This document shows, one piece after another, positions 3 to 62,756 of a stretch of DNA of 64,000 nt. A program made the position numbers and the translations under genes. The stretch is from positions 1 to 64,000 of the forward strand of contig BPQB01000066.1 of NCBI GenBank assembly GCA_019973155.2, read 5' to 3'. Numbering within the stretch: the stretch's first letter is position 1; every line of letters begins with the position of its first letter. This DNA comes from Phanerochaete sordida (Eukaryota > Basidiomycota > Agaricomycetes > Polyporales > Phanerochaetaceae). The notes beneath the pieces are model-generated. The model worked only from the letters and a program-made list of their open reading frames with translations, did no database searches and was not told the origin of the DNA.

Positions 3-2813
3 AATGACAAGAAAGAGCATCGCCGGATAGTCCACGAAGTGTTGCAGCGACTGGAAGACAACGACCTCTTCGCCAAGGCAGAGAAGTGTCTCTTTGAAAA
101 GGACAAACTCGCGTACCTCGGCATGATAATCTCACACAATCATGTCGAGATGGACCCTGCCAAAGTATCAGGCGTAATGGATTGGCCCGTACCGACCAAG
201 GTTAAGCACGTACAGGCTTTCCTTGGGTTCGCGAACTTCTATCGCAGGTTCATCAAGGACTTTGCGAAGATAGCGAAGCCGCTCACAACTCTCACGAAGA
301 AAGATCAACCCTGGGTTTGGGAATCTGAGCAGCAGAAGGCATTCGACGACCTGAAAAAGGCGTTCACCTCTGCTCCAATCTTACGAATTCCGGACGATGT
401 AAATCCGTTCAGGCTCTCCACCGATGCTAGCGATTTTGCTATTGGCTCGGTTCTGTCACAACTCGACCCCGAAGATAATCTCTATCATCCAGTCGCCTTT
501 CACTCTAAGTCGCTCAACGTTCACGAGAGGAACTACGAGATATACGACAAGGAAATGCTGGCTATAATTCGAGGGTTAGAGGAATACAGACACTACCTGG
601 AGGGGCATCCCGCGAAATTCGAGATTTGGTCAGACCACCAAAACTTGACTTATTTTAAGCAAGCCCAGAAATTGTCTCGACGTCAGGCCCGATGGGCACT
701 GTACTTAACGAGATTCTACTTCACACTTCACCACAAGCCCGGTAAAACAATGGAGGCCGAAGATCCTCTGTCCAGGAGACCAGATCATGAGGAGGGGGTA
801 GAATTCGACAATCGCGACCACATTCTTCTAAAGCCAGAATTTTTCGCCAATTTGCTTGAAGTTTGCGCGATCGACTCCTCCCACGACACCCCAGTAAACG
901 ATGATTTACTACTCCACGACGTCAAGAAGGCATTGTTAACCGACGAAGTGACCAAGAACTATCAATCATTACTCAAATCAGGCCCACGCGAGTTCAAGAA
1001 ACCGTTGGAGGAATGGAATTTTGAGAATGGACTACTACTATTCAGAGGTCACATATACATCCCGAAGGATACAGACGAGGATTTACGTCGACGTGTAACC
1101 CAAATGCACCACGACCACCCATCAGCCGGACATCCTGGCAGATGGAAGACCTATGAACTCTTATCCCGCAACTATTGGTGGCCGGGAATGTCTGTTTTTG
1201 TCAAGAAATACGTAGCAGGTTGCGACACATGCCAGCGAATGAAGAATCGCACGCAGCAGCCCTACGGACCACTCAGGCCCAACAAGGTTCCTCACGGACC
1301 TTGGGAAATCATTACCATTGATTTAATCACTCAACTCCTACCGTCGAGAGGCAAAAACGCTATCCTAGTCGTTGTATGCCGACTCACCAAGAGAGGACGC
1401 TTCTTCGCAATCACCAACGAGTTCTCGTCCACCGACCTTGCTAGGCTGCTGATGGATAGAGTATATCCTATCCACGGTTTGCCCCTGCAGATAATCTCGG
1501 ATCGAGGCACTCAGTTTGCGGCAGAACTATTCCAAGAGTGGTGTAAACTACTGGATATCGAGTCAGCAATGTCCACAGCGTATCACCCTCAGACCGACGG
1601 TCAAACGGAACGAGTAAATCAAGTCTTGGAGCAATATCTCCGCTGCTTCGTCGATAATTACAATCACGAGGATTGGGTCGACTTCTTGCCTACGGCAGAG
1701 TTCGCCTACAACAACGCAGCGCACGAGAGCACCAAGGAAACTCCTTACTTTTTGGAGTATGGTAGACACCCACGGGCTGGTCCTACACTCGTCAAGCAAG
1801 CCAAGCGCACAGACTTGAACGAGATATTCAGACTTAGACAAGACGCCCAAGACAAGGCCAAAGCCGCCCTTCAACTGGCAGCGGATCGCATGAAGTGGTA
1901 CTACGATCAGTACAAGCAAGAAGTCCCCTTCAAGGTTGGCGACAAAGTGTTGCTCGACTCCAAGGACTATCAGACCACTCAGCGTTCGCTGACACCGCGG
2001 TATCTTGGGCCGTTCGACATCATCGAGCAGCTCTCACAGGTTACCTTCAAGGTGAAATTGCCTGCGAAATACAGGGCTATTCACCCGGTGTTCCACGCCA
2101 GTAAACTCATCCCCTATTCGACACCATCCATCGTCGGGCAGAAGCAGGCACCGCCTGAGCCCGAGGAACACGACGGGCACACGGAGTACGTGGTCGAGAA
2201 AATTCTCAATCACAAAACTACCGGCCGTGTCAAGGTCAAACATTGGTACCTTGTACGATGGAAAGGCTATGGGCCTGAAGAAGACTCATGGGAACCAGAA
2301 TCAAATCTGGAAGGCGTCAAGGATCTCATCGAGAAATTCCGAAAAGAGATACTCTACCTTGCGCCTGGGAAACTGGAAATACAGCACCTCGATCTCGAGG
2401 ATACTCTTCAGATCGTACTCGAAGGCGGAAAACCACCGCATAGAGGCTCCACCGAGGCAGCAGGCTTTGACCTGTATGCAGCAGAAGACACTGTCATTCC
2501 AATTGGTACTCGAAAACCCATCAACTCAGGCATTCGCATCAGAGTACCCGCAGGGACTTATGGTCGAATTGCACCAAGATCAGGGCTCGCACTCAAAGGC
2601 ATCGACGTTGGCGCAGGCGTAATCGACCGGGACTACACTGGCGTGATCAAAATACTACTCCATAACTCAAGCGACCGTGACTTTTTGGTCACAACTGGAG
2701 ATAGGATCGCCCAGTTAATCCTGGAGAAAATAGCAAATGCAGCCATCGAAGTCGTCGATGACTTAGCAGCCACTGAACGCGGCACGAGCGGGTTTGGATC
2801 CACCGGAAAATAA
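3..2813 (+). CDS. Ty3/gypsy retrotransposon polyprotein, 3' part, with chromodomain and dUTPase
   Basis: The frame is open from the left edge, so gag, protease and most of reverse transcriptase lie outside. Counting from residue 1 at base 39: RT thumb/connection (about 1-115), RNase H (about 120-240, with DAS and SDHQN motifs), an H2C2 integrase zinc finger (HHDHPSAGHPG ... CDTCQ, about 357-399), integrase core with D428, D488 and E524 (D-D35-E spacing kept), a GPF/Y-like module, a chromodomain near 705-760 (VRWKGYGPEEDSWEP), then a trimeric-type dUTPase over the last 135 residues. All five dUTPase motifs are readable: AGFDLYA, PRSGLA, GVIDRDYTG, GDRIAQLI and RGTSGFGSTG. No stop or frameshift is present, so this part looks intact. 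Chromodomains target integration to chromatin in this clade. dUTPase-bearing metavirid elements are known from basidiomycetes; the enzyme presumably keeps uracil out of the cDNA. Confidence 0.95.
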   Translation, partial: NDKKEHRRIVHEVLQRLEDNDLFAKAEKCLFEKDKLAYLGMIISHNHVEMDPAKVSGVMDWPVPTKVKHVQAFLGFANFYRRFIKDFAKIAKPLTTLTKKDQPWVWESEQQKAFDDLKKAFTSAPILRIPDDVNPFRLSTDASDFAIGSVLSQLDPEDNLYHPVAFHSKSLNVHERNYEIYDKEMLAIIRGLEEYRHYLEGHPAKFEIWSDHQNLTYFKQAQKLSRRQARWALYLTRFYFTLHHKPGKTMEAEDPLSRRPDHEEGVEFDNRDHILLKPEFFANLLEVCAIDSSHDTPVNDDLLLHDVKKALLTDEVTKNYQSLLKSGPREFKKPLEEWNFENGLLLFRGHIYIPKDTDEDLRRRVTQMHHDHPSAGHPGRWKTYELLSRNYWWPGMSVFVKKYVAGCDTCQRMKNRTQQPYGPLRPNKVPHGPWEIITIDLITQLLPSRGKNAILVVVCRLTKRGRFFAITNEFSSTDLARLLMDRVYPIHGLPLQIISDRGTQFAAELFQEWCKLLDIESAMSTAYHPQTDGQTERVNQVLEQYLRCFVDNYNHEDWVDFLPTAEFAYNNAAHESTKETPYFLEYGRHPRAGPTLVKQAKRTDLNEIFRLRQDAQDKAKAALQLAADRMKWYYDQYKQEVPFKVGDKVLLDSKDYQTTQRSLTPRYLGPFDIIEQLSQVTFKVKLPAKYRAIHPVFHASKLIPYSTPSIVGQKQAPPEPEEHDGHTEYVVEKILNHKTTGRVKVKHWYLVRWKGYGPEEDSWEPESNLEGVKDLIEKFRKEILYLAPGKLEIQHLDLEDTLQIVLEGGKPPHRGSTEAAGFDLYAAEDTVIPIGTRKPINSGIRIRVPAGTYGRIAPRSGLALKGIDVGAGVIDRDYTGVIKILLHNSSDRDFLVTTGDRIAQLILEKIANAAIEVVDDLAATERGTSGFGSTGK

Positions 2814-54600: not shown

Positions 54601-54938
54601 TCAGGCAATGACGCACACGGTGCCCGACGCTTCCTACAGCAGGGCAGCACGCGTCAGCAGAGGTTACAAGATGCAGCACGACCAACCACGGCACGCACCT
54701 GCACAATGACGCGAGCGCGGCGCGTTGCTCTGGTGCGCTCGTCTGGGGAAAGGTGACGGGGCTCGGGCACGCCGCCCAGGTTCTCATCGCACGGCGCGGC
54801 CGCCATCTTCTCGGTCAGGGGCATAATCGCGGTGTGCGGCACGTTCGGCGCAGGAATGGGCATGCTGGGCTGTAGGACACGGTCAGCAGCGTGGAGTGCG
54901 ACGCGTACGTCTGGCGGACGTACCGCTGGCATCGGCAT
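54601..54938 (-). CDS. CaaX peptide 1, candidate lipopeptide pheromone precursor
   Basis: Exons 54938-54924 (MPMPA), 54869-54699 and 54633-54601 give 72 residues ending EASGTVCVIA then stop. CVIA is a farnesylation-type CaaX box as in basidiomycete mating pheromones. Upstream lies a basic run ERTRATRRAR, so processing after ER or RRAR could give an 11-19 residue mature lipopeptide. The last exon is exactly 33 nt. The start is set by a TATA box (55033-55040) 95 bp upstream; an ATG at 55018 is too close to that box to be in the mRNA and is in another frame. Versus copy 2, most changes in this frame are third-position, which supports coding. No receptor gene is seen near it, so the pheromone role is inferred from build alone. 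Confidence 0.62.
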
Positions 54939-55032
54939 CTGGGCTGGTAGGGTTGGTGTAGAGAGCGGCGGTGGGTCTTCAAAAGCTTGTCTTCAAACTG
55001 GGAGCTGAGGCTCGACATCGCAGAGCACAGTG

Positions 55033-55040
55033 CTTATATA
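55033..55040 (-). promoter_or_regulatory. TATA box of CaaX peptide gene 1
   Basis: TATATAAG on the minus strand, 95 bp before the ATG at 54938. The same element sits at the same distance from gene 2. Confidence 0.55.
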
Positions 55041-55656
55041 CATTGTCGCCTACCCTGCGGCCGCGCGTATGTGCGCTCTGCGTCGGTGCAGGCGGGAAGA
55101 GTGATGATGGCGAGCGAGGCATCATGCCGGTGCGCATCACGGAACGAGGGGTCCCCATCCATCCGGTCCCAGCAGCGTGCTCACCGACCTTCCCCCACTG
55201 CTCGCGATGCGGATGGCAAGGAGCGAGCACTGTGTCGTGCTGGAGCCGTACCTCCCGACAACGCGCACCTGCGAAGGCGCTCCGGTACGGTCGCGGAGGA
55301 GAACACCGTGCGCGGACGGGCGGGTCAAGTAGAAGCATACTGAGCGGCATACCAGCGCGAGCGCGCATCGTGGTAACCGCCCGTGGAGGACCATCGGAGT
55401 GCGTGTAACGGCGGCTACGGCAAATATGCGGGGATGATTATTCTCGAGATTGCGGACCGATGGACTCAGAAACATAGCATTATACGGAGGCTCTTGCAGA
55501 TCGATATGATCGCATTATTCGCGGCCAGAGCGAAGTCTGCCTGCACAATAGCTCCTTCTCAGAAGGACGCCGGCCCGAGGCCCTGAACCCGGCCACAGGC
55601 TCGATTGGGCCAGTTGTCTACAGCGGGGAAACCAGTGGCTACAGGCATGATGGTAA

Positions 55657-56212
55657 TTACAGCACCACGGAGTCAATGGTCCAGTTCCCAAATCCAATGT
55701 CATTTACAATGCCCAACGCAGTTGTAACCGCAAGCGTGCAGTCGAGAGCATAGAGCGGACATGTGGGACACTGCGTCGGTCGTCAGCGAGACTCGCACCG
55801 CGAGTGCTGCTCCTCACCTCGTCAACGATGACAGCCTGAACGCTCTTTTCATTGAGAGATATTGTGATTTTAGCAAAGCAGAGGCTTCCCTTCGTAGCTT
55901 GGTACTGCTGCGAAGTACATTGCGATGTGAGTATGATTACATGGGTGGACGGACATCGATCATTTACGGGTAAGTTCAGTGCAACGGCCTGGTAAATTAC
56001 TGGCGTGAGTTAAACAGCGGCAGCATAGCGAGGACACGCACAAAGTCAGCGTTGTGCATGATTTGACCGCACGAGCCGAGGGCACCCTCTGGATAATATT
56101 GTGTGAAGCGCGCATTTGTGAACACGTCTCCAGGCTTCGCCCCCGTCGCAAGCACGGCATCTGCTGCGTCGCTCGAGGCGGCCAAGATATAGCCAGCGAA
56201 GACTATGAGCAT
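55657..56212 (-). CDS. Small RlpA/barwin-like double-psi beta-barrel protein
   Basis: Exons 56212-56042, 55988-55968, 55907-55818 and 55770-55657, all phase 0, give 131 residues. A short hydrophobic start (MLIVFAGYILAASSDAADA) could be a signal peptide. The domain reads FTQYYPEGALGSCGQ, HNADFAVALNL, LCFAKITISLNEKSVQAVIVDE and CPTCPLYALDCTLAVTTALG. That matches the G.A(T/R)FY..GxGACG, N.D..VAL, C.K.I.I...GKSV.A.VVD and CP.C....(I/L)DL pattern of RlpA-like barwin/expansin proteins. Such secreted proteins are abundant in mushroom fungi and may act on cell walls. It lies between the two arms of the CaaX duplication. Confidence 0.7.
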
Positions 56213-57365
56213 GAATATAAGAGTGGAACAGCATCGTACGGAGTGGAGTAATGAGCGGGGATCGGTTGCTAGGTATTATCGCGGCTTTGCAATGTGACCT
56301 TTATACCTATTGCTCTCGGTAGCCTGGTCTAGTACCGCACGATAGCGCCGGGCATAAGAGTAGAGTATGTCAAGGTTTCTCCTTTTTCGAGGAGATATGC
56401 TCGGCTACACGTCATCTAAATCGCGAGCACTACGCAATGCGGCAGCGCGTGACACGTACGCTCTAGGTAAAAGGCAATAAGATAGCCTGCATCGTACAAG
56501 AACCACAAATTTACGTACCGCCACATCTATCTCTCCGACATTCGACATATTAATATAAGCATTCCCGGCAAGCTTACTCATAGTGCCGATGGTTCCGCAG
56601 ATGCAGACATGGCACGAGGCATTGTAATCAACTCTGTATCAGCCGTCCAGTCAAACTAATGGTCCGCTCGGTGGACAGAGAGGACGGCATTACCTCAAAG
56701 GGAGCCGAAAACACACGCTTGAGCGGTGTACAGCGCGGTCATAATACGGCGGTCAAACGTACAGCTCATCAGAGAGATCAAAGGTGCGCCCTCCTGGCCT
56801 GCAAGGAGAACCGCGGCTCGGAACTGTCCAGGTGAAGGTTTCGCAGATGCTGGTGGGAATGAACATGGGCTCCGAACCGGCGTCCAGTGGCGACTGGAGC
56901 GTACGCAAAGGGGAAAATTGAAGTAAAATTGAAGCGAGTTACGCCACGCAAGCCCCGGGAGAATACTGTATAATGACGACGAAATCGGATGTCATCGGTC
57001 ATAGGACCTCCATCCGATTTGCTATATTGCATTTGTTAGGTGTGGTTGAGAGCTCATCCGGTAGTCATCCGGTCATCCGGTTCGGTGCGTGGCTACCACT
57101 GTCATACCACCATCCGATTTGGTCGTATTTCGACAGTATCTCGCTACCGATCCGCCGGAATATATGCCCCAAACTGCCCCGCTCCCTCGCACCCCGGTCC
57201 ATCTGACCGAGATGACTGTGTATGTGTAGCTTCTCTCATGCCGGGCCGTCATAGGCCTCACGCAGCGACGTAAGATGCGCCGGACCCCTCCTGCTACGAC
57301 CGGCCCACCACAGTGAGACATCAGCACTGCACTCCACCAATAATTCATATCGTTGTAATTGGTTG
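56213..57365. other. 1.15-kb gene-free stretch
   Basis: Mostly AT-richer DNA without a supported gene. 56981-57121 carries two copies of CATCCGATTTG (57011 and 57111), an inverted AAATCGGATG (56982) and three CATCCGG strings between them. Confidence 0.4.
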
Positions 57366-57432
57366 CAGATAGTACAGAGAAAGCTCCAGATGCAGGGCCA
57401 GGGCAGACCAATCGCGGCTCCGGAGAACTCCA

Positions 57433-57770
57433 TCAGGCAATAACGCACACGGTGCCAGACGCCTCCTACCACGGGTCAGCGCGCGTCAGCAGAGGTTATA
57501 AGATGCGACACGGGCAGCGACGGCACGCACCTGCACAATGACGCGAGCGCGGCGCGTCGCTCTGGCGCGCTCGTCCGGGGAGGAGCGACGGGGCTCGGGG
57601 ACGCCGCTCGGGCTCTCGTCGCGCGGCTCGGCCGCCATCTTCTCGGTCGGGGGCATGATTGCGGTGTGCGGTGCGTTCGGCGCGGGCATGGGCATGTTGG
57701 GCTGCGAGGTGCGGTCAGCGTCGTGCAGCAGGATGCGTACGTCCGGTGGACGTACCGCTGGCATCGGCAT
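57433..57770 (-). CDS. CaaX peptide 2, candidate lipopeptide pheromone precursor
   Basis: Exons 57770-57756, 57701-57531 and 57465-57433: the same sizes (15, 171 and 33 nt) as gene 1 and 72 residues. The C-terminus EASGTVCVIA is identical to gene 1. The middle differs at about a dozen residues (for example MPIPAPNV here reads MPMPAPNA), while the basic run RARATRRARVIVQ is kept. A TATA box at 57865-57872 is again 95 bp upstream of the ATG. The conservation is strongest over the last 25 residues, the part expected to be the mature peptide plus CaaX. Confidence 0.62.
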
Positions 57771-57864
57771 TTGGGCTGGTAGGATTGGTGTAGAGAACGG
57801 CGGTGAGTGTTCAGAAGCTTGTCTTCAATCTGGGAGCTGAGGCTCGACATTGCAGGCTGCGATG

Positions 57865-57872
57865 CTTATATA
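57865..57872 (-). promoter_or_regulatory. TATA box of CaaX peptide gene 2
   Basis: TATATAAG on the minus strand, 95 bp before the ATG at 57770, as for gene 1. Confidence 0.55.
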
Positions 57873-58561
57873 CGTTGTCACCTACCCCCCAGCCGCGCGC
57901 ATGTGCGCTCTGCGTCGGTGCGAGCGGGAAGAGTGATGATGGCGAGCGGGGCATATTCGCGGTGCGCATCACGGAATCAGAGCTCCCCGCGCGTCCGGTC
58001 CCAGCGAAGTGCTCACCGATCATGCGCAGGACCTCTGCGCACCGCCCGCGATGAGGACGGCATGTGGAGAGCACGGTGCCGTGCTCCCGACAAAGCGCGT
58101 CTGCGACAGCGCCCCGGTGTTGCCGCGGATAACTGGGCTTGCTCAGCGCGCCTGCGTACGCGAGAGGGCCTCGAAAGCGCATCGGGCGGGGTGCGGCCGC
58201 GCAGGCGCACGCCGTGGTGGCGTCTGATGGAGCGCGGCCGGGGCGCGCGTGAGGGCGACCGCGAGGTACGGTTCACGCGAAGATCGCGTACCAGGGCTAT
58301 GCGACGCACCATTCGACATACCGTCTGGGGTGCGTCCCTCGGCATTTGTCCCAGAGGCAGTTATTGCGCCACACCAGCACGCCTGCGTTCCGGCCGTGGT
58401 GCGGCACGAATTGAACGGACCGGCTCATGTCAAAGACCCAGGTATATAATCCACGTCTGCATTCAGTCACGTTGAATACCAGTCGAGGCAGCGATATGTT
58501 ACTAAACCTCCCTTCTCTCTCATGTTATCCGGCTTCGCGCCATCTCCCGCCGTCCGCCAAC

Positions 58562-58835
58562 TCAAGCAACGACGCACGACGCGCCAGACGCCTCCTACCA
58601 CCCACCACACATCAGCACCGCTCACCAGCAAGCACGAAGCAATTACAGTACGCACCGTGACGACGATCCTCGCCCGCCTGGCCGCACGCGCGCGCTCCGC
58701 CTCTGCGCCCTCTCCAGGGCGCGGGGGCTCGGGCGCGTCGGTGGGCACTGCGCTGCGCGCGTGCGGCGGCGCAGCCTCGCTCGAGATTTCGGTGGTCGGA
58801 GAGGCGTCGGGGCGGGTGGTACTGGGTGCGTGCAT
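58562..58835 (-). CDS. CaaX peptide 3, candidate lipopeptide pheromone precursor
   Basis: Exons 58835-58656 and 58594-58562 give 70 residues from MHAPSTTRPD to EASGASCVVA. An in-frame ATG at 58862 would add nine residues; CATACGCAGG just before 58835 could also be an acceptor. The N-terminal half differs from genes 1 and 2, but ERARAARRARIVVT lines up with ERARATRRARVIVQ. The final exon is again 33 nt after a GT-AG intron of 61 bp. TATAAAG on the minus strand (58961-58967) lies about 125 bp upstream. CVVA is a typical farnesyl CaaX box in mushroom pheromones. Confidence 0.58.
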
Positions 58836-58960
58836 CTTCCTGCGTATGCTGTATCTACACACTTCGGTCAGCTATGCGCCCGCGCGAACGTGCGCGAGTG
58901 GGGCGTACCGTTCGCGGTGTCCTGGGGTGAGATGGCGGATGGACGCTGCGCCGTCGGGGA

Positions 58961-58967
58961 CTTTATA
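58961..58967 (-). promoter_or_regulatory. TATA-like element of CaaX peptide gene 3
   Basis: TATAAAG read on the minus strand, 126 bp upstream of the ATG at 58835. Confidence 0.4.
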
Positions 58968-59980
58968 CGTGTGCGCCGCGGCGGCCGGTGGCTCGGCGGG
59001 ATAGGCCGCGGGGCCCGCAGAAGCACGCCGTGGTACGGTCCCAGAAGCCCACGGGCGGAAGAAGCTCGCAGACAGCGTAGACGGCGAAGCGCAGCGGCCT
59101 ATCGACGCGGCGGCCGGTCGCTGACGGACGGCGTGCACCAGAAACGGCGCGGCTGCCCTAGAAGCAGCGGGCCTGACGCCGCGACAGGAATAGACGTGCG
59201 CGCCGGCCGCCGCGCGCAGCCCTGGCGATCCGCACAGTGGTGCAGCTTTGCGCACGCGCGATGCGTCCACAAATAGCCCGCGCGGGGGCATTGTCGGCGG
59301 CGTCGCGCCGGGTGCCGCGAGATGGACGACGGGGAGGCGGGCGCGGATTGGCGCGGCGAGCGGCGGGGCGTGGGAGGGCGCGTGTGCCGCGTGCGCCGGG
59401 AGGTGGCGTGGGAGGCGCGGGTGGGATGGCTCGTTGCTCGTGCGCGATGCGCGGTGGCCGGGCAGTCTGGGCTGGGTCGTGCGCGCTGCGTGCGGTGCTG
59501 TAGGTCGTGTCAGCTGGGACGGAGGTTACGCAGATCCAGAGCCGCACAAGGCCTCTCGGCGGCTCATGTGTTTGTCTCTAGCGGTCGCCGCCAGAGGTCC
59601 TTGTGTACTGAAGGTGTTCTGGAATCGCTTCCGCAGAGTTACAGACCGAATCTGCCCGCCTTCAGTACAATATAAAATGCGTACATTTACGCATCTAACC
59701 CACCCGTGTGGGGCGTCAGGCAAGGTAGAAAATGCTCACAGGATGGGTGAGTACTCACCGATCCAGCTGGGCATGATGTGAGCTGAGTCACGCCCATAAC
59801 TGGACGTCTGGGTCCCGACGAGGCAGACGCACACTGCGTGTAGAACGCGCCAGCGCCGCAGCGCGTGCGCACGATCTGCGCTGTCCCCGTGCGCGCAGGT
59901 GCGCCCCCCGCACCGACACACCTCACACTCTTCCTCTCCACACTCGCACCCGCCGCTCTCGGACCGCGATGCCTCCCGAC
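58968..59980. other. GC-rich gene-poor stretch
   Basis: Contains long Arg/Ala/Gly-rich frames on both strands (for example 59158-59547 minus and 59248-59781 plus) that lack domains and look like by-products of GC-rich DNA. No gene is supported. Confidence 0.4.
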
Positions 59981-60350
59981 GCCCGACGCTCGCGCGCCCG
60001 CGGGCCACAGCCGGCAGTGACCTGTCCGCCGAGCTGTGGGACCCGATCGCCGCCCGCGCCGTCGCGGCCTACGCCGACGCGCTGCTCTCGCGCGTCCCGA
60101 GCGTCGACGGCGTGGCCCTGCACACGTTGGACGCGGTGCGCCTCCACACGCACGCCCGCTTGCCCGCCGCAGGCGCCGCCGGACCCCGTCGCGAGCCTGC
60201 TACGCTGCGCGGCACTTCACGCTGCGCCTGCTCGCCCGCGGCATCGACGCGTCCTCCATCTCAGACGGGCACGGCCGGCTCGTGCCCCGTCCGCCCACAC
60301 GTCCCCCAGCCCCAACATGCGCCCGCGCCCGCGCACTCGTGCGCGCGCTC
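59969..60350 (+). pseudogene. Decayed copy of the F-box-like tandem family
   Basis: The segment SDLSAELWDPIAARAVAAYADALL matches the LPPEVW...VVD start of the 49.7 and 51.6 kb genes. A CCGCAG acceptor is followed by PPDPVASL, then AARHFTLRLLARGIDASS in another frame. Compared with the 63.9-kb copy, which reads HPVASLLRLSYTARHVTLRV, 11 nt are missing after GTCGCGAGC, which shifts the frame. The donor that ends this exon in the other copy (CG|GTACGT) is GCTCGT here. The only nearby ATG (59969) is out of frame with the F-box-like segment. No downstream exons are recognisable. Three independent lesions make this a pseudogene. Confidence 0.6.
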
Positions 60351-60545
60351 TGACGTGACTATCAGTCCACCAATTTGTCGTTGGCGCGGCTGGTGTGCGT
60401 CCGCGGAGGCCGTCTCGCCGTGGGACATCCGATGCATATATTCGCGCCACGCCGACACAATAAATATACGACCCCGTCCATAACTCCTTCGCAGCCCGTC
60501 CGCCGCGCCCCCACCCGCCGCCGCCCCGTCCTCCCGCTGCGCGTC

Positions 60546-60807
60546 TCACGCGATAATGCACGTCGCGCCAGTCGCCTCCTGCGGTGCCCCGCCACGTTAG
60601 CGCACACACAGGATGATACAGGCTGCGACGTACGTTCACGACGATGCGCGCGCGGCGCGCGGCGGCGACGCGGTCGTGCGCGACGGGCTCGTGCGCATTC
60701 TCGACGGAATGCTGGGTCGCGTGCTCGGGGGCCGACGCGACGGGCGTGCTGGACGGCGCGCAGTCGTGCAGAGACGGGAGCGGCGCGGGGCGCTGTGTGG
60801 CGAGCAT
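60546..60807 (-). CDS. CaaX peptide 4, candidate lipopeptide pheromone precursor
   Basis: Exons 60807-60634 and 60578-60546 give 68 residues ending EATGATCIIA. The block AAARRARIVVN precedes the last intron, matching genes 1-3. The N-terminal part (MLATQRPAPLPSLHD...) has diverged beyond alignment, while the final 20 residues remain conserved, so selection seems focused on the peptide end. The last exon is 33 nt, as in all four. HDR at residues 44-46 could replace the ER processing site. It lies just downstream of, and convergent with, the decayed F-box-like copy. Confidence 0.56.
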
Positions 60808-62756
60808 TATCGTTGTGCTGGATCGGGTGTCTCGGGTGTTCTGGTGTGCGGGCGATGGCTGAGACGCTGCGAGGCTTGCTGGTCTCGGCGGCGGCCCTGC
60901 GGGCTTATGTACTGGTGCGCGGCCGGCGGGAAGGGGTTGGGTGGGAGTCGGGCGTGGTGCGAGACCGCAGCGGAGGTGCGGTTGCGAGGCGCATCAGGGC
61001 GCACTGGACGGTGTTTATTGCGATGGGAGTGGGCGGTGCGGCACGCGCGGGCGTATATTGCGCGGATGCTCTTCCGGCGACATGCACACGGTGACGGACG
61101 CTGCGCCGTGTCGCGATCGTTCCACGCGCGGGCACGTCCCCGATCTTGTCTCGCGATGTAGCGTAGCACCGCACATGTGCTACGTGCACGCAATCAAACC
61201 AAACGCGAAGTAGCATCCCCCGGGCACGCCGCATCAGTGATTCCCAAGTCGGCACTGCCCCACAACGCCAAACACAGCGCGAAGGACGCTGTGCGCGGTG
61301 CTTTCGGGCAGCGTCCAGCGGCCGCGCGCCACCGACGCAGTTCTGTGGCAAGTGCCGGAGCCGCCCGGGCACCGCTCCCGAAGCCCAATTGCGCGCACCA
61401 GAGCCCACCACGGCGGGGACGCCTCTAGCCAGCGCCGCCCTGCGCGTCGGCAGCGTCGGCGGTGCGTTCGCACGCGCGCACTCAGCTGGAAGCGCGAGCT
61501 CCCGGCCGCTATCAAGGTGTGCGTCACATCAGCCGCTACTGCTGCCGCGCACTCACGCGGCCTCTTTATGGCGAGCCCTCTGGGCGGACGCGACTAGGCC
61601 CGCGAACGGGTCACAAGTGCTTCGCTGGGCCCTGGTGCCATCAACGCATCTCCCTAGCGTGCGAGTCTGCGGCCCCGCGTGTTGGGAACTCTATCACTCC
61701 TTTGGCTTGGTGCGCAGCGATGGCGCGTGCCTCGAGGCCCGCGTCGTTCCCAGCGTGCGTCCTGGCTTGACCGTGGACGACGTCGACTAGGACCTACAGG
61801 TGCGCCGTTTGACGTCATGCGTGCCGTGTTGACGTCTGGGTACGCCGCGTGCAGACGACAGGACGCGACAGACATGCTCTGCGCCGCGCCGATAGCGCAG
61901 CCGAACCGTGCGCCCCCGCCGTACGAACAGTTCCCGCTCGTCGCGCTCCCTCGGCGCGACGTGACGGAAAGAGTGCCAGAATCCGAGGAGCAGCATATAT
62001 CGAGCAAGGAAGTACGTGCGGACGACGAGAAGGGTCGTGTAGCTCAGACCGTGCCGGTGGTGCGTCTGCAGTCTGATTTTCTGACGTTTGAGCTGACTAT
62101 ATGCGCAGGAACAGAACCGGGCGGGGTCTTCCTGTATCATAGCATGACTGAATTCACCCACCGCACCTCGTATCGTGCGTACCGCGCGTACCGTCCCGCG
62201 TGCATCACAGGACGCGAAGCGCAGCATCTCTGTACCCTGCTGGCCGCGTACAACAAGGATAGCGTCGGCCGGCGGCCGGCGCTGCTGCGTCCACCTCGCA
62301 TCCGCGTCCCATGCCCTGTAGCAAGGCTGCCTCGATTCGGAGACGGCATGCGTCGCTGACTCTACGCGGCAGCCCTACGCCACCGTGACGCGCTCGGCGA
62401 GGCGTTCTGACGGACGATTGCGAGGCTCGGGAGACACGGGCGGACGTGGCGGTGAATGCACGGCGTCCTCTCTGGAGCTTTTCGAATGGCGTTTGGCGGA
62501 CATCGGGGCATTCACTGGCACCTGCTGTGCCAAAGTTCCTCGCTTTTATCCTTCAAGGCCCGCGCAAAGTAGATGGCGTCAGCCTGTCCTTGTTCATACG
62601 CTCTTCAGCGCAAAGCATGCTCTTCGCCGCCTTTGACGAAACCTTTTAGGTGGTTGCTCCGAGCTGCAATCCCATGATAACATGCTCTATGCATCGTTCA
62701 CGTGTGTATCCTCAGCTCTTCTGCTACGTGCAAGCTACGTGACAGCGGGCAGGCCG
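60808..62756. other. 2-kb GC-rich region with no recognised gene
   Basis: The longest frame, 61679-62359 (+, 226 residues), has APPPYEQFPLV and RAYRAYRP but no domain, and an equally long frame opposes it. I do not call a gene. The region lies between CaaX peptide 4 and the last F-box-like gene, where a receptor gene might be expected but is not seen. Confidence 0.4.

What the first reader, a model, noticed from the sequence alone, without database searches (positions are those of the whole stretch)
54601..60807. Four-member family of small CaaX peptides that look like mating pheromone precursors
Four minus-strand genes encode 68-72 residue proteins ending VCVIA, VCVIA, SCVVA and TCIIA. They share A-R-R-A-R-(V/I)-(I/V)-V-(Q/T/N)-E-A-(S/T)-G before the CaaX Cys, while the N-terminal halves diverge. 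That is how basidiomycete B-locus lipopeptide pheromone precursors evolve. Each motif appears only after splicing a short intron, so standard gene finders would miss them.
Basis: partly seen in the sequence, partly recalled or inferred. Interest (0 to 1): 0.9.

Follow-up and report, generated by a model that had tools for sequence, protein, structure and literature searches.

The report
Five intron-split farnesyl-peptide genes
A wood-rotting fungus carries a small cluster of genes that look built to make short fat-tailed signalling peptides like fungal mating pheromones, but the cluster was not found beside the known mating genes and each peptide is split by an intron, so usual pheromone searches would overlook it.

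Summary
The window is part of a Phanerochaete sordida YK-624 contig. Four minus-strand genes, once a short phase-0 intron is removed, encode 68, 70, 72 and 72 aa proteins ending [AT]RRAR[IV][IV]V[QTN]EA[ST]G[TA][VST]C[VI][VI]A-stop. A six-frame listing and a splice-aware scan show a fifth CaaX gene on the plus strand (61874-62147, ...EQNRAGSSCIIA) with the same architecture; the scan with 12 decoy residues in place of Cys found none in 219 kb. In the C/D duplicate pair the last 26 codons look held by selection (dN 0.018, dS 0.276) while introns and flanks drifted by 18-28%. The interpretation needs correction. The cluster does not look like a B mating locus: STE3 matches lie on contigs C4, C11, C50 and C137, the HD/MIP locus on C3, MD-starting precursor-like ORFs on C35 and C150. 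The MD start is absent (0 of 5) and the presumed mature part of A-D is conserved, not diversified. Two of the four genes are already annotated as hypothetical proteins. Best reading: non-mating, pheromone-like farnesyl-peptide precursors. Splicing, lipidation, secretion and receptor are inferred. New variant of a known kind; interest about 0.5.

The parts
60634..60807 (-). gene A exon 1 (58 codons, ends ...ARRARIVVN)
60579..60633 (-). gene A intron, 55 nt, GTACGT...CGCAG, contains CTAAC
60546..60578 (-). gene A exon 2: EATGATCIIA-stop
58656..58835 (-). gene B exon 1 (60 codons, ends ...ARRARIVVT)
58595..58655 (-). gene B intron, 61 nt, GTGCGT...GGTAG, contains CTGAT
58562..58594 (-). gene B exon 2: EASGASCVVA-stop
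57756..57770 (-). gene C exon 1a (MPMPA)
   Evidence: agrees with annotated P0001
57702..57755 (-). gene C intron 1, 54 nt, GTACGT...CTGAC...GCAG
   Evidence: agrees with P0001
57531..57701 (-). gene C exon 1b (ends ...TRRARVIVQ)
57466..57530 (-). gene C intron 2, 65 nt
57433..57465 (-). gene C exon 2: EASGTVCVIA-stop (NCBI PsYK624_131890, 72 aa)
57258..57290 (-). decayed extra exon 2 (EGSGASYVAA-stop, no Cys); no exon 1 seen before it
54924..54938 (-). gene D exon 1a (MPMPA)
54870..54923 (-). gene D intron 1, 54 nt (left unspliced in the NCBI 90-aa model)
54699..54869 (-). gene D exon 1b (ends ...TRRARVIVQ)
54634..54698 (-). gene D intron 2, 65 nt
54601..54633 (-). gene D exon 2: EASGTVCVIA-stop (NCBI PsYK624_131880)
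61874..62059 (+). gene E exon 1 (62 codons from this ATG; another in-frame ATG lies at 61817; start uncertain)
62060..62108 (+). gene E intron, 49 nt, GTGCGT...CTGAC...GCAG, phase 0 (an acceptor 6 nt further on is also possible)
60904..60911 (-). TATA-like TACATAAG, 104 nt before the ATG of gene A
58962..58967 (-). TATA-like TATAAA, 132 nt before the ATG of gene B
57867..57872 (-). TATA-like TATATA, 102 nt before the ATG of gene C
55035..55040 (-). TATA-like TATATA, 102 nt before the ATG of gene D

Best explanation
A local cluster of five small genes (A-D in tandem, E divergent) encoding precursors of farnesylated signalling peptides of the pheromone-like, non-mating-type sort. Shown from sequence: small spliceable genes, a TATA-like box before A-D, a CaaX end, and a C-terminal part that looks held by purifying selection in the C/D pair. 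Inferred: splicing joins RRAR..V to EA[ST]G..CaaX; the Cys is farnesylated; the last three residues are removed and the end methylated; a protease cuts upstream, near the ER/DR/DE dipeptide or after RRAR; the C-terminal lipopeptide of about 11-19 residues leaves the cell and acts on an STE3-type receptor encoded elsewhere, outside mating-type recognition. Because the intron splits the peptide, an unspliced transcript would lack the CaaX box, so splicing could control whether the peptide is made.
For: C[VI][VI]A-stop 5 times in the window against 0.13 expected. Splice-aware scan: 5 Cys genes, 0 for each of 12 decoy residues in 219,258 bp (A-D guided the scan's design, so only E is an independent hit). 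C/D codons 47-72: dS 0.276, dN 0.018; chance of at most 1 nonsynonymous change at a neutral rate of 0.18 is 2e-4; upstream 17.9%, intron 2 18.5%, intron 1 27.8% diverged; exon 2 has three differences and identical protein. Charged dipeptide 20 residues before Cys in 5 of 5, of the kinds listed in PMC8305134. No strongly hydrophobic N-terminus by hydropathy alone (highest 9-residue mean in the first 40 residues 1.44). [quoted passage not shown] Weak support: 25 PF04140 (ICMT) matches in this genome, though the two tested also score for phospholipid methyltransferase.
Against: No RNA reads, no mass data, no orthologue found. 0 of 5 start MD, no PF08015 match, no STE3 match on the contig. The dipeptide lies 20 residues before Cys, not the 10-15 given in PMC5473757. 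Gene E is only weakly similar to A-D (hhalign probability 14%, P 0.0019, 11 columns). The selection result rests on the C/D pair; its two halves do not differ significantly (Fisher P 0.073), and over the last 20 codons the other five pairs of A-D have dN 0.20-0.32 with dS 0.47-1.77, so constraint there is only moderate. 8 of 25 ICMT matches lay in stretches I scanned and none had a spliced CaaX gene beside it.
Confidence: 0.6

Rival explanations
1. Small uncleaved membrane-anchored proteins: the RRAR basic patch plus a farnesyl Cys tethers them to the inner membrane, as at the ends of Ras-type proteins (recalled), and nothing is secreted.
For: RRAR 11-14 residues before the CaaX Cys, invariant in A-D; no MD start and no strongly hydrophobic start.
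Against: No Pfam match; in C/D the N-half changes while the C-terminal peptide is held; the EA[ST]G between basic patch and Cys is not needed for anchoring (inference); gene E lacks RRAR.
Confidence: 0.2
2. True B mating-type pheromone precursors whose receptor is on another contig.
For: CaaX, size, charged dipeptide, clustering of several genes. A fragmented assembly (222 contigs) could hide longer-range linkage.
Against: No STE3 match on the 193.6-kb contig; no spliced CaaX gene in the held stretches around the STE3 matches (L017-L026); MD-starting CaaX ORFs on C35 and C150; C-terminal parts of A-D alike rather than diverse.
Confidence: 0.1
3. Precursors of another processed-peptide product (RiPP-like or defence peptide) in which RRAR is a Kex2-type cutting site.
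For: RRAR in A-D; hybrid precursors with Kex2 sites and CaaX exist in Trichoderma (PMC3068285, passages).
Against: No strongly hydrophobic start; gene E has no RRAR; no biosynthetic enzyme recognised in the 20 ORFs tested with Pfam, all to the left of the cluster.
Confidence: 0.06
4. Chance or decaying sequence: no expressed genes, CaaX ends coincidental.
For: No transcript seen; a decayed exon copy is present.
Against: 5 observed against 0.13 expected, only synonymous change between C and D over the last 20 codons, consistent splice signals, NCBI models for two of them.
Confidence: 0.04

Closest known systems
[quoted passage not shown] passages seen in PMC8305134 and PMC4101180)
   Same: Small CaaX precursors, paralogues with similar C-termini, not linked to the mating-type loci found, charged dipeptide upstream.
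   Different: Pycnoporus ones start MDA/DF and are 39-65 aa; Agaricus ones are 44-54 aa with G-rich mature peptides and an expected MDS/AF cut. Here no MD start, no G-rich peptide, and an intron splits the peptide.
B-locus (P/R) mating pheromone precursors of basidiomycetes (Pfam PF08015)
   Same: CaaX end, size under 100 aa, charged dipeptide, several genes together.
   Different: No STE3 match on the contig, no MD start, no PF08015 match, C-terminal part alike among A-D instead of diversified.
Hybrid-type precursor HPP1 of Trichoderma (passages seen in PMC3068285)
   Same: CaaX plus a basic site.
   Different: HPP1 has three copies of its motif and two Kex2 sites; no such repeats here; ascomycete.

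Membership tests
Basidiomycete lipopeptide pheromone precursor | C-terminal CaaX box | tested here: met
   5 of 5 genes; E was found by this feature
Basidiomycete lipopeptide pheromone precursor | Short precursor (up to about 100 aa) | tested here: met
   68, 70, 72, 72, 74 aa
Basidiomycete lipopeptide pheromone precursor | N-terminal MD(S/A)F-type motif | tested here: not met
   0 of 5; starts are ML, MH, MP, MP, ML
Basidiomycete lipopeptide pheromone precursor | Charged dipeptide (ER/DR/EH/NH/EE/DE) about 10-15 residues before CaaX | tested here: inconclusive
   DR, ER, ER, ER, DE in A-E, but 20 residues before the Cys; noticed after the fact
Basidiomycete lipopeptide pheromone precursor | Pfam PF08015 match | tested here: not met
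   0 of 5 at E<=10; weak test: of 3 MD-type CaaX ORFs of this genome 1 also fails and 2 are below cut-off, and the whole-genome search has 3 matches, none over cut-off
Basidiomycete lipopeptide pheromone precursor | Farnesylation, cleavage, secretion, receptor activation | not testable with these tools
   needs mass spectrometry and receptor assays
B (P/R) mating-type locus | STE3 receptor genes beside the precursors | tested here: not met
   15 PF02076 matches on C11, C4, C50 and C137, none on C66 (the search scores only its best candidates)
B (P/R) mating-type locus | Allelic diversity between mating types | not testable with these tools
   one strain only
A (HD) mating-type locus | HD genes and MIP nearby | tested here: not met
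   two PF05920 matches and a peptidase M3 (MIP-type) lie together on C3 within 5 kb; a third PF05920 match is on C23 and a second M3 peptidase on C106; none on C66
[quoted passage not shown]
   A-D similar, E only weakly; linkage tested at contig level only

The most novel reading that the evidence does not exclude
A class of lipopeptide signals, distinct from mating pheromones, whose peptide is split by a conserved intron so that splicing decides whether a farnesylated ligand or a CaaX-less protein is made; these would be ligands of the orphan non-mating STE3-like receptors, in a genome with many ICMT-type methyltransferase genes.
Probability: 0.15. Interest if true: 0.75.

Novelty: new variant of a known kind. 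Interest (0 to 1): 0.5.

Why it matters
Pheromone surveys look by pattern for ORFs ending in CaaX (passage in PMC5473757), and at least one discards hits far from STE3 or longer than 200 bp (passage in PMC8970355). Genes like these would fail such filters, so similar peptides may be overlooked in other mushrooms. Whether the non-mating STE3-like receptors of Agaricomycetes respond to pheromones is described as unknown (passage in PMC8305134); these peptides are concrete ligand candidates that can be synthesised and tried.

Tried and rejected
Homologues: two searches of about 5.8 billion proteins returned only the window's own C and D proteins (250 candidates, 3 candidates) and one returned nothing (7 candidates). 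This does not show that the family is absent elsewhere: gene models may miss such genes and so short a motif scores near the limit. A scan of viral contigs gave 25 pattern matches and no relative.

More copies in this genome: C as DNA finds only itself and D; B, A and E as DNA each find only themselves. Protein queries with C and with B exon 1 gave only weak hits outside C66 (best E 0.09; 0.49). Distant copies could be missed.

Link to prenyl-methylation genes: 25 PF04140 matches, one on C66 about 110 kb away. Five stretches (L048-L052, 25.9 kb) holding 8 of the 25 held no spliced CaaX gene; one unspliced CaaX ORF of 44 aa in L051 lacks the motif. The two ICMT matches tested also score for phospholipid methyltransferase, so some may not be true ICMT.

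Promoters: no 8-mer shared by the 350 nt before A, B, C and E; the two shared 7-mers are GC-rich. ACAAAG absent in the 300 nt before the A-D start codons. No TATA-like box seen by eye in the 160 nt printed before E.

G-protein gamma subunit or Ras fragment considered and dropped for want of any Pfam match. Structure prediction was not tried (short, Pro/Ala-rich). Literature: only listings and passages seen. Agaricus precursors have a 3'-UTR intron (PMC8305134) and Grifola precursors have 2-5 exons (PMC10607315), so introns in such genes are not new. I saw none described inside the mature peptide in searches or in the passages; a search for P. sordida, genome and mating listed no paper on its pheromones by title. 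PMC3067404 (P. chrysosporium mating locus) is not held.

Full report
What is there. The window is the first 64,000 bases of contig C66 (193,647 bp) of a 40.8-Mb assembly in 222 contigs. Two proteins on a contig of that length carry the names PsYK624_131880 and PsYK624_131890, Phanerochaete sordida. Removing one short GT...AG intron from each of four minus-strand genes gives proteins ending EATGATCIIA (A), EASGASCVVA (B), EASGTVCVIA (C) and EASGTVCVIA (D). In all four the intron is in phase 0 and lies directly before the Glu of EA[ST]G. C and D have a further 54-nt candidate intron after MPMPA. The alignment of A-D has 16 invariant columns of 72, and 10 of them lie in the last 18 positions.

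A fifth gene. Listing every C[VI][VI]A-stop in six frames of the window gave five, not four. The fifth is on the plus strand, about 1.07 kb from the start of A and divergent from it. Its model (61874-62147) ends ...GRVAQTVPV|EQNRAGSSCIIA, with a 49-nt phase-0 intron whose GTGCGT donor is that of B, C and D. A scan for a broad set of CaaX endings, any intron phase, basic splice signals and an ATG-started exon of at least 25 codons, over 219,258 bp (the window plus loci L014-L029), returned nine models of exactly these five genes (alternative acceptors included), all in phase 0. The same scan with each of 12 other residues in place of Cys returned none. A-D shaped the scan, so only E counts as an independent hit. 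Sequence similarity of E to A-D is weak (hhalign probability 14%, P 0.0019 over 11 columns), and its start codon is uncertain.

Selection. C and D are copies of a 779-bp stretch, 80% identical. Between them, upstream DNA differs at 17.9% of sites, intron 1 at 27.8%, intron 2 at 18.5% and the 3' flank at 18.8%, but the last 30 nt of exon 1b at 3.3% and exon 2 at 9.1%. Codons 47-72 have dS 0.276 and dN 0.018; codons 1-46 have dS 0.249 and dN 0.124. The last 20 codons have four synonymous and no nonsynonymous change. At a neutral rate of 0.18 the chance of at most one nonsynonymous change in codons 47-72 is 2e-4, though the contrast between the two halves alone has Fisher P 0.073. Among the other five pairs of A-D the last 20 codons have dN 0.20-0.32 and dS 0.47-1.77, a weaker constraint. 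A stray exon-2 copy at 57290-57258 reads EGSGASYVAA and has lost the Cys. Together this suggests a protein-level need for the C-terminal peptide in the intact copies.

Apparently not a mating-type locus. PF02076 (STE3) matches, 15 in all, lie on C11, C4, C50 and C137, none on C66. Two homeobox (PF05920) matches and a MIP-type peptidase are together on C3; a third homeobox match is on C23 and another M3 peptidase on C106. CaaX ORFs with an MD start are on C35 (two) and C150 (one); two of the three match PF08015 weakly, below its cut-off, and one does not; none of A-E matches it. The genome-wide PF08015 search gave 3 matches, none over cut-off. Of 20 ORFs left of the cluster tested with Pfam, those recognised are ordinary: histone deacetylase, two protein-kinase pieces just under the cut-off, a ubiquinol-cytochrome c chaperone, two F-box-like ORFs near the cut-off, a PHD/SET protein and a retroelement, besides two weak matches under cut-off. 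ORFs to the right of the cluster were not tested with Pfam.

How it probably works. The features that can be read from sequence (CaaX, size, charged dipeptide, no strongly hydrophobic start) are those of precursors that are farnesylated in the cytosol, trimmed, methylated, cut upstream and exported (established knowledge of fungal a-type pheromones). The passage in PMC8305134 lists ER/DR/EH/NH/EE/DE as cutting dipeptides; A-E have DR, ER, ER, ER and DE, each exactly 20 residues before the Cys. That is farther than the 10-15 residues given in PMC5473757, so the real cut may be nearer, for example after RRAR in A-D, which would leave an 11-residue peptide. [quoted passage not shown] All steps after transcription, and splicing itself, are inferred.

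The genes are not all missed by annotation: C is annotated with both introns removed, D with only the last one removed. The pattern of evolution is not that of B-locus pheromones, whose precursors are described as very distinct in sequence. The motif in C and D is TRRAR. There are five CaaX genes, not four.

Limits. One genome, no transcripts, no relatives found in three protein searches. The contig-level absence of STE3 does not exclude linkage at larger distance. The search for further copies elsewhere in the genome was limited to DNA and protein similarity and to the splice-aware scan of held stretches.

Noticed in passing
genome-wide; C66:172359-172547: PF04140 (ICMT, isoprenylcysteine methyltransferase) has 25 matches in this genome, with close sets on C40, C22 and C47; the two tested also score for phospholipid methyltransferase.
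   Followed up: partly
window 39-2813 (+): Ty3/gypsy-type polyprotein frame with RNase H, integrase, chromodomain and a C-terminal dUTPase domain (E 2e-39).
   Followed up: no
window 57290-57258 (-): Decayed extra exon-2 copy in which the CaaX Cys codon reads Tyr, downstream of gene C.
   Followed up: partly
window 58129-57364 and 55297-54531 (-): 779-bp duplication (80% identity) that includes upstream region and whole gene of C and D.
   Followed up: yes
L027 near 4902 (C150); L029 near 7786 and 334 (C35): MD-starting CaaX ORFs of 50, 37 and 60 aa that look like ordinary pheromone precursors, on contigs without a listed STE3 match.
   Followed up: partly
G000:C11:662402-672908, G000:C4:5565-6621: STE3 matches near the end of contig C11 and near the start of contig C4, which may be one broken locus.
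   Followed up: no
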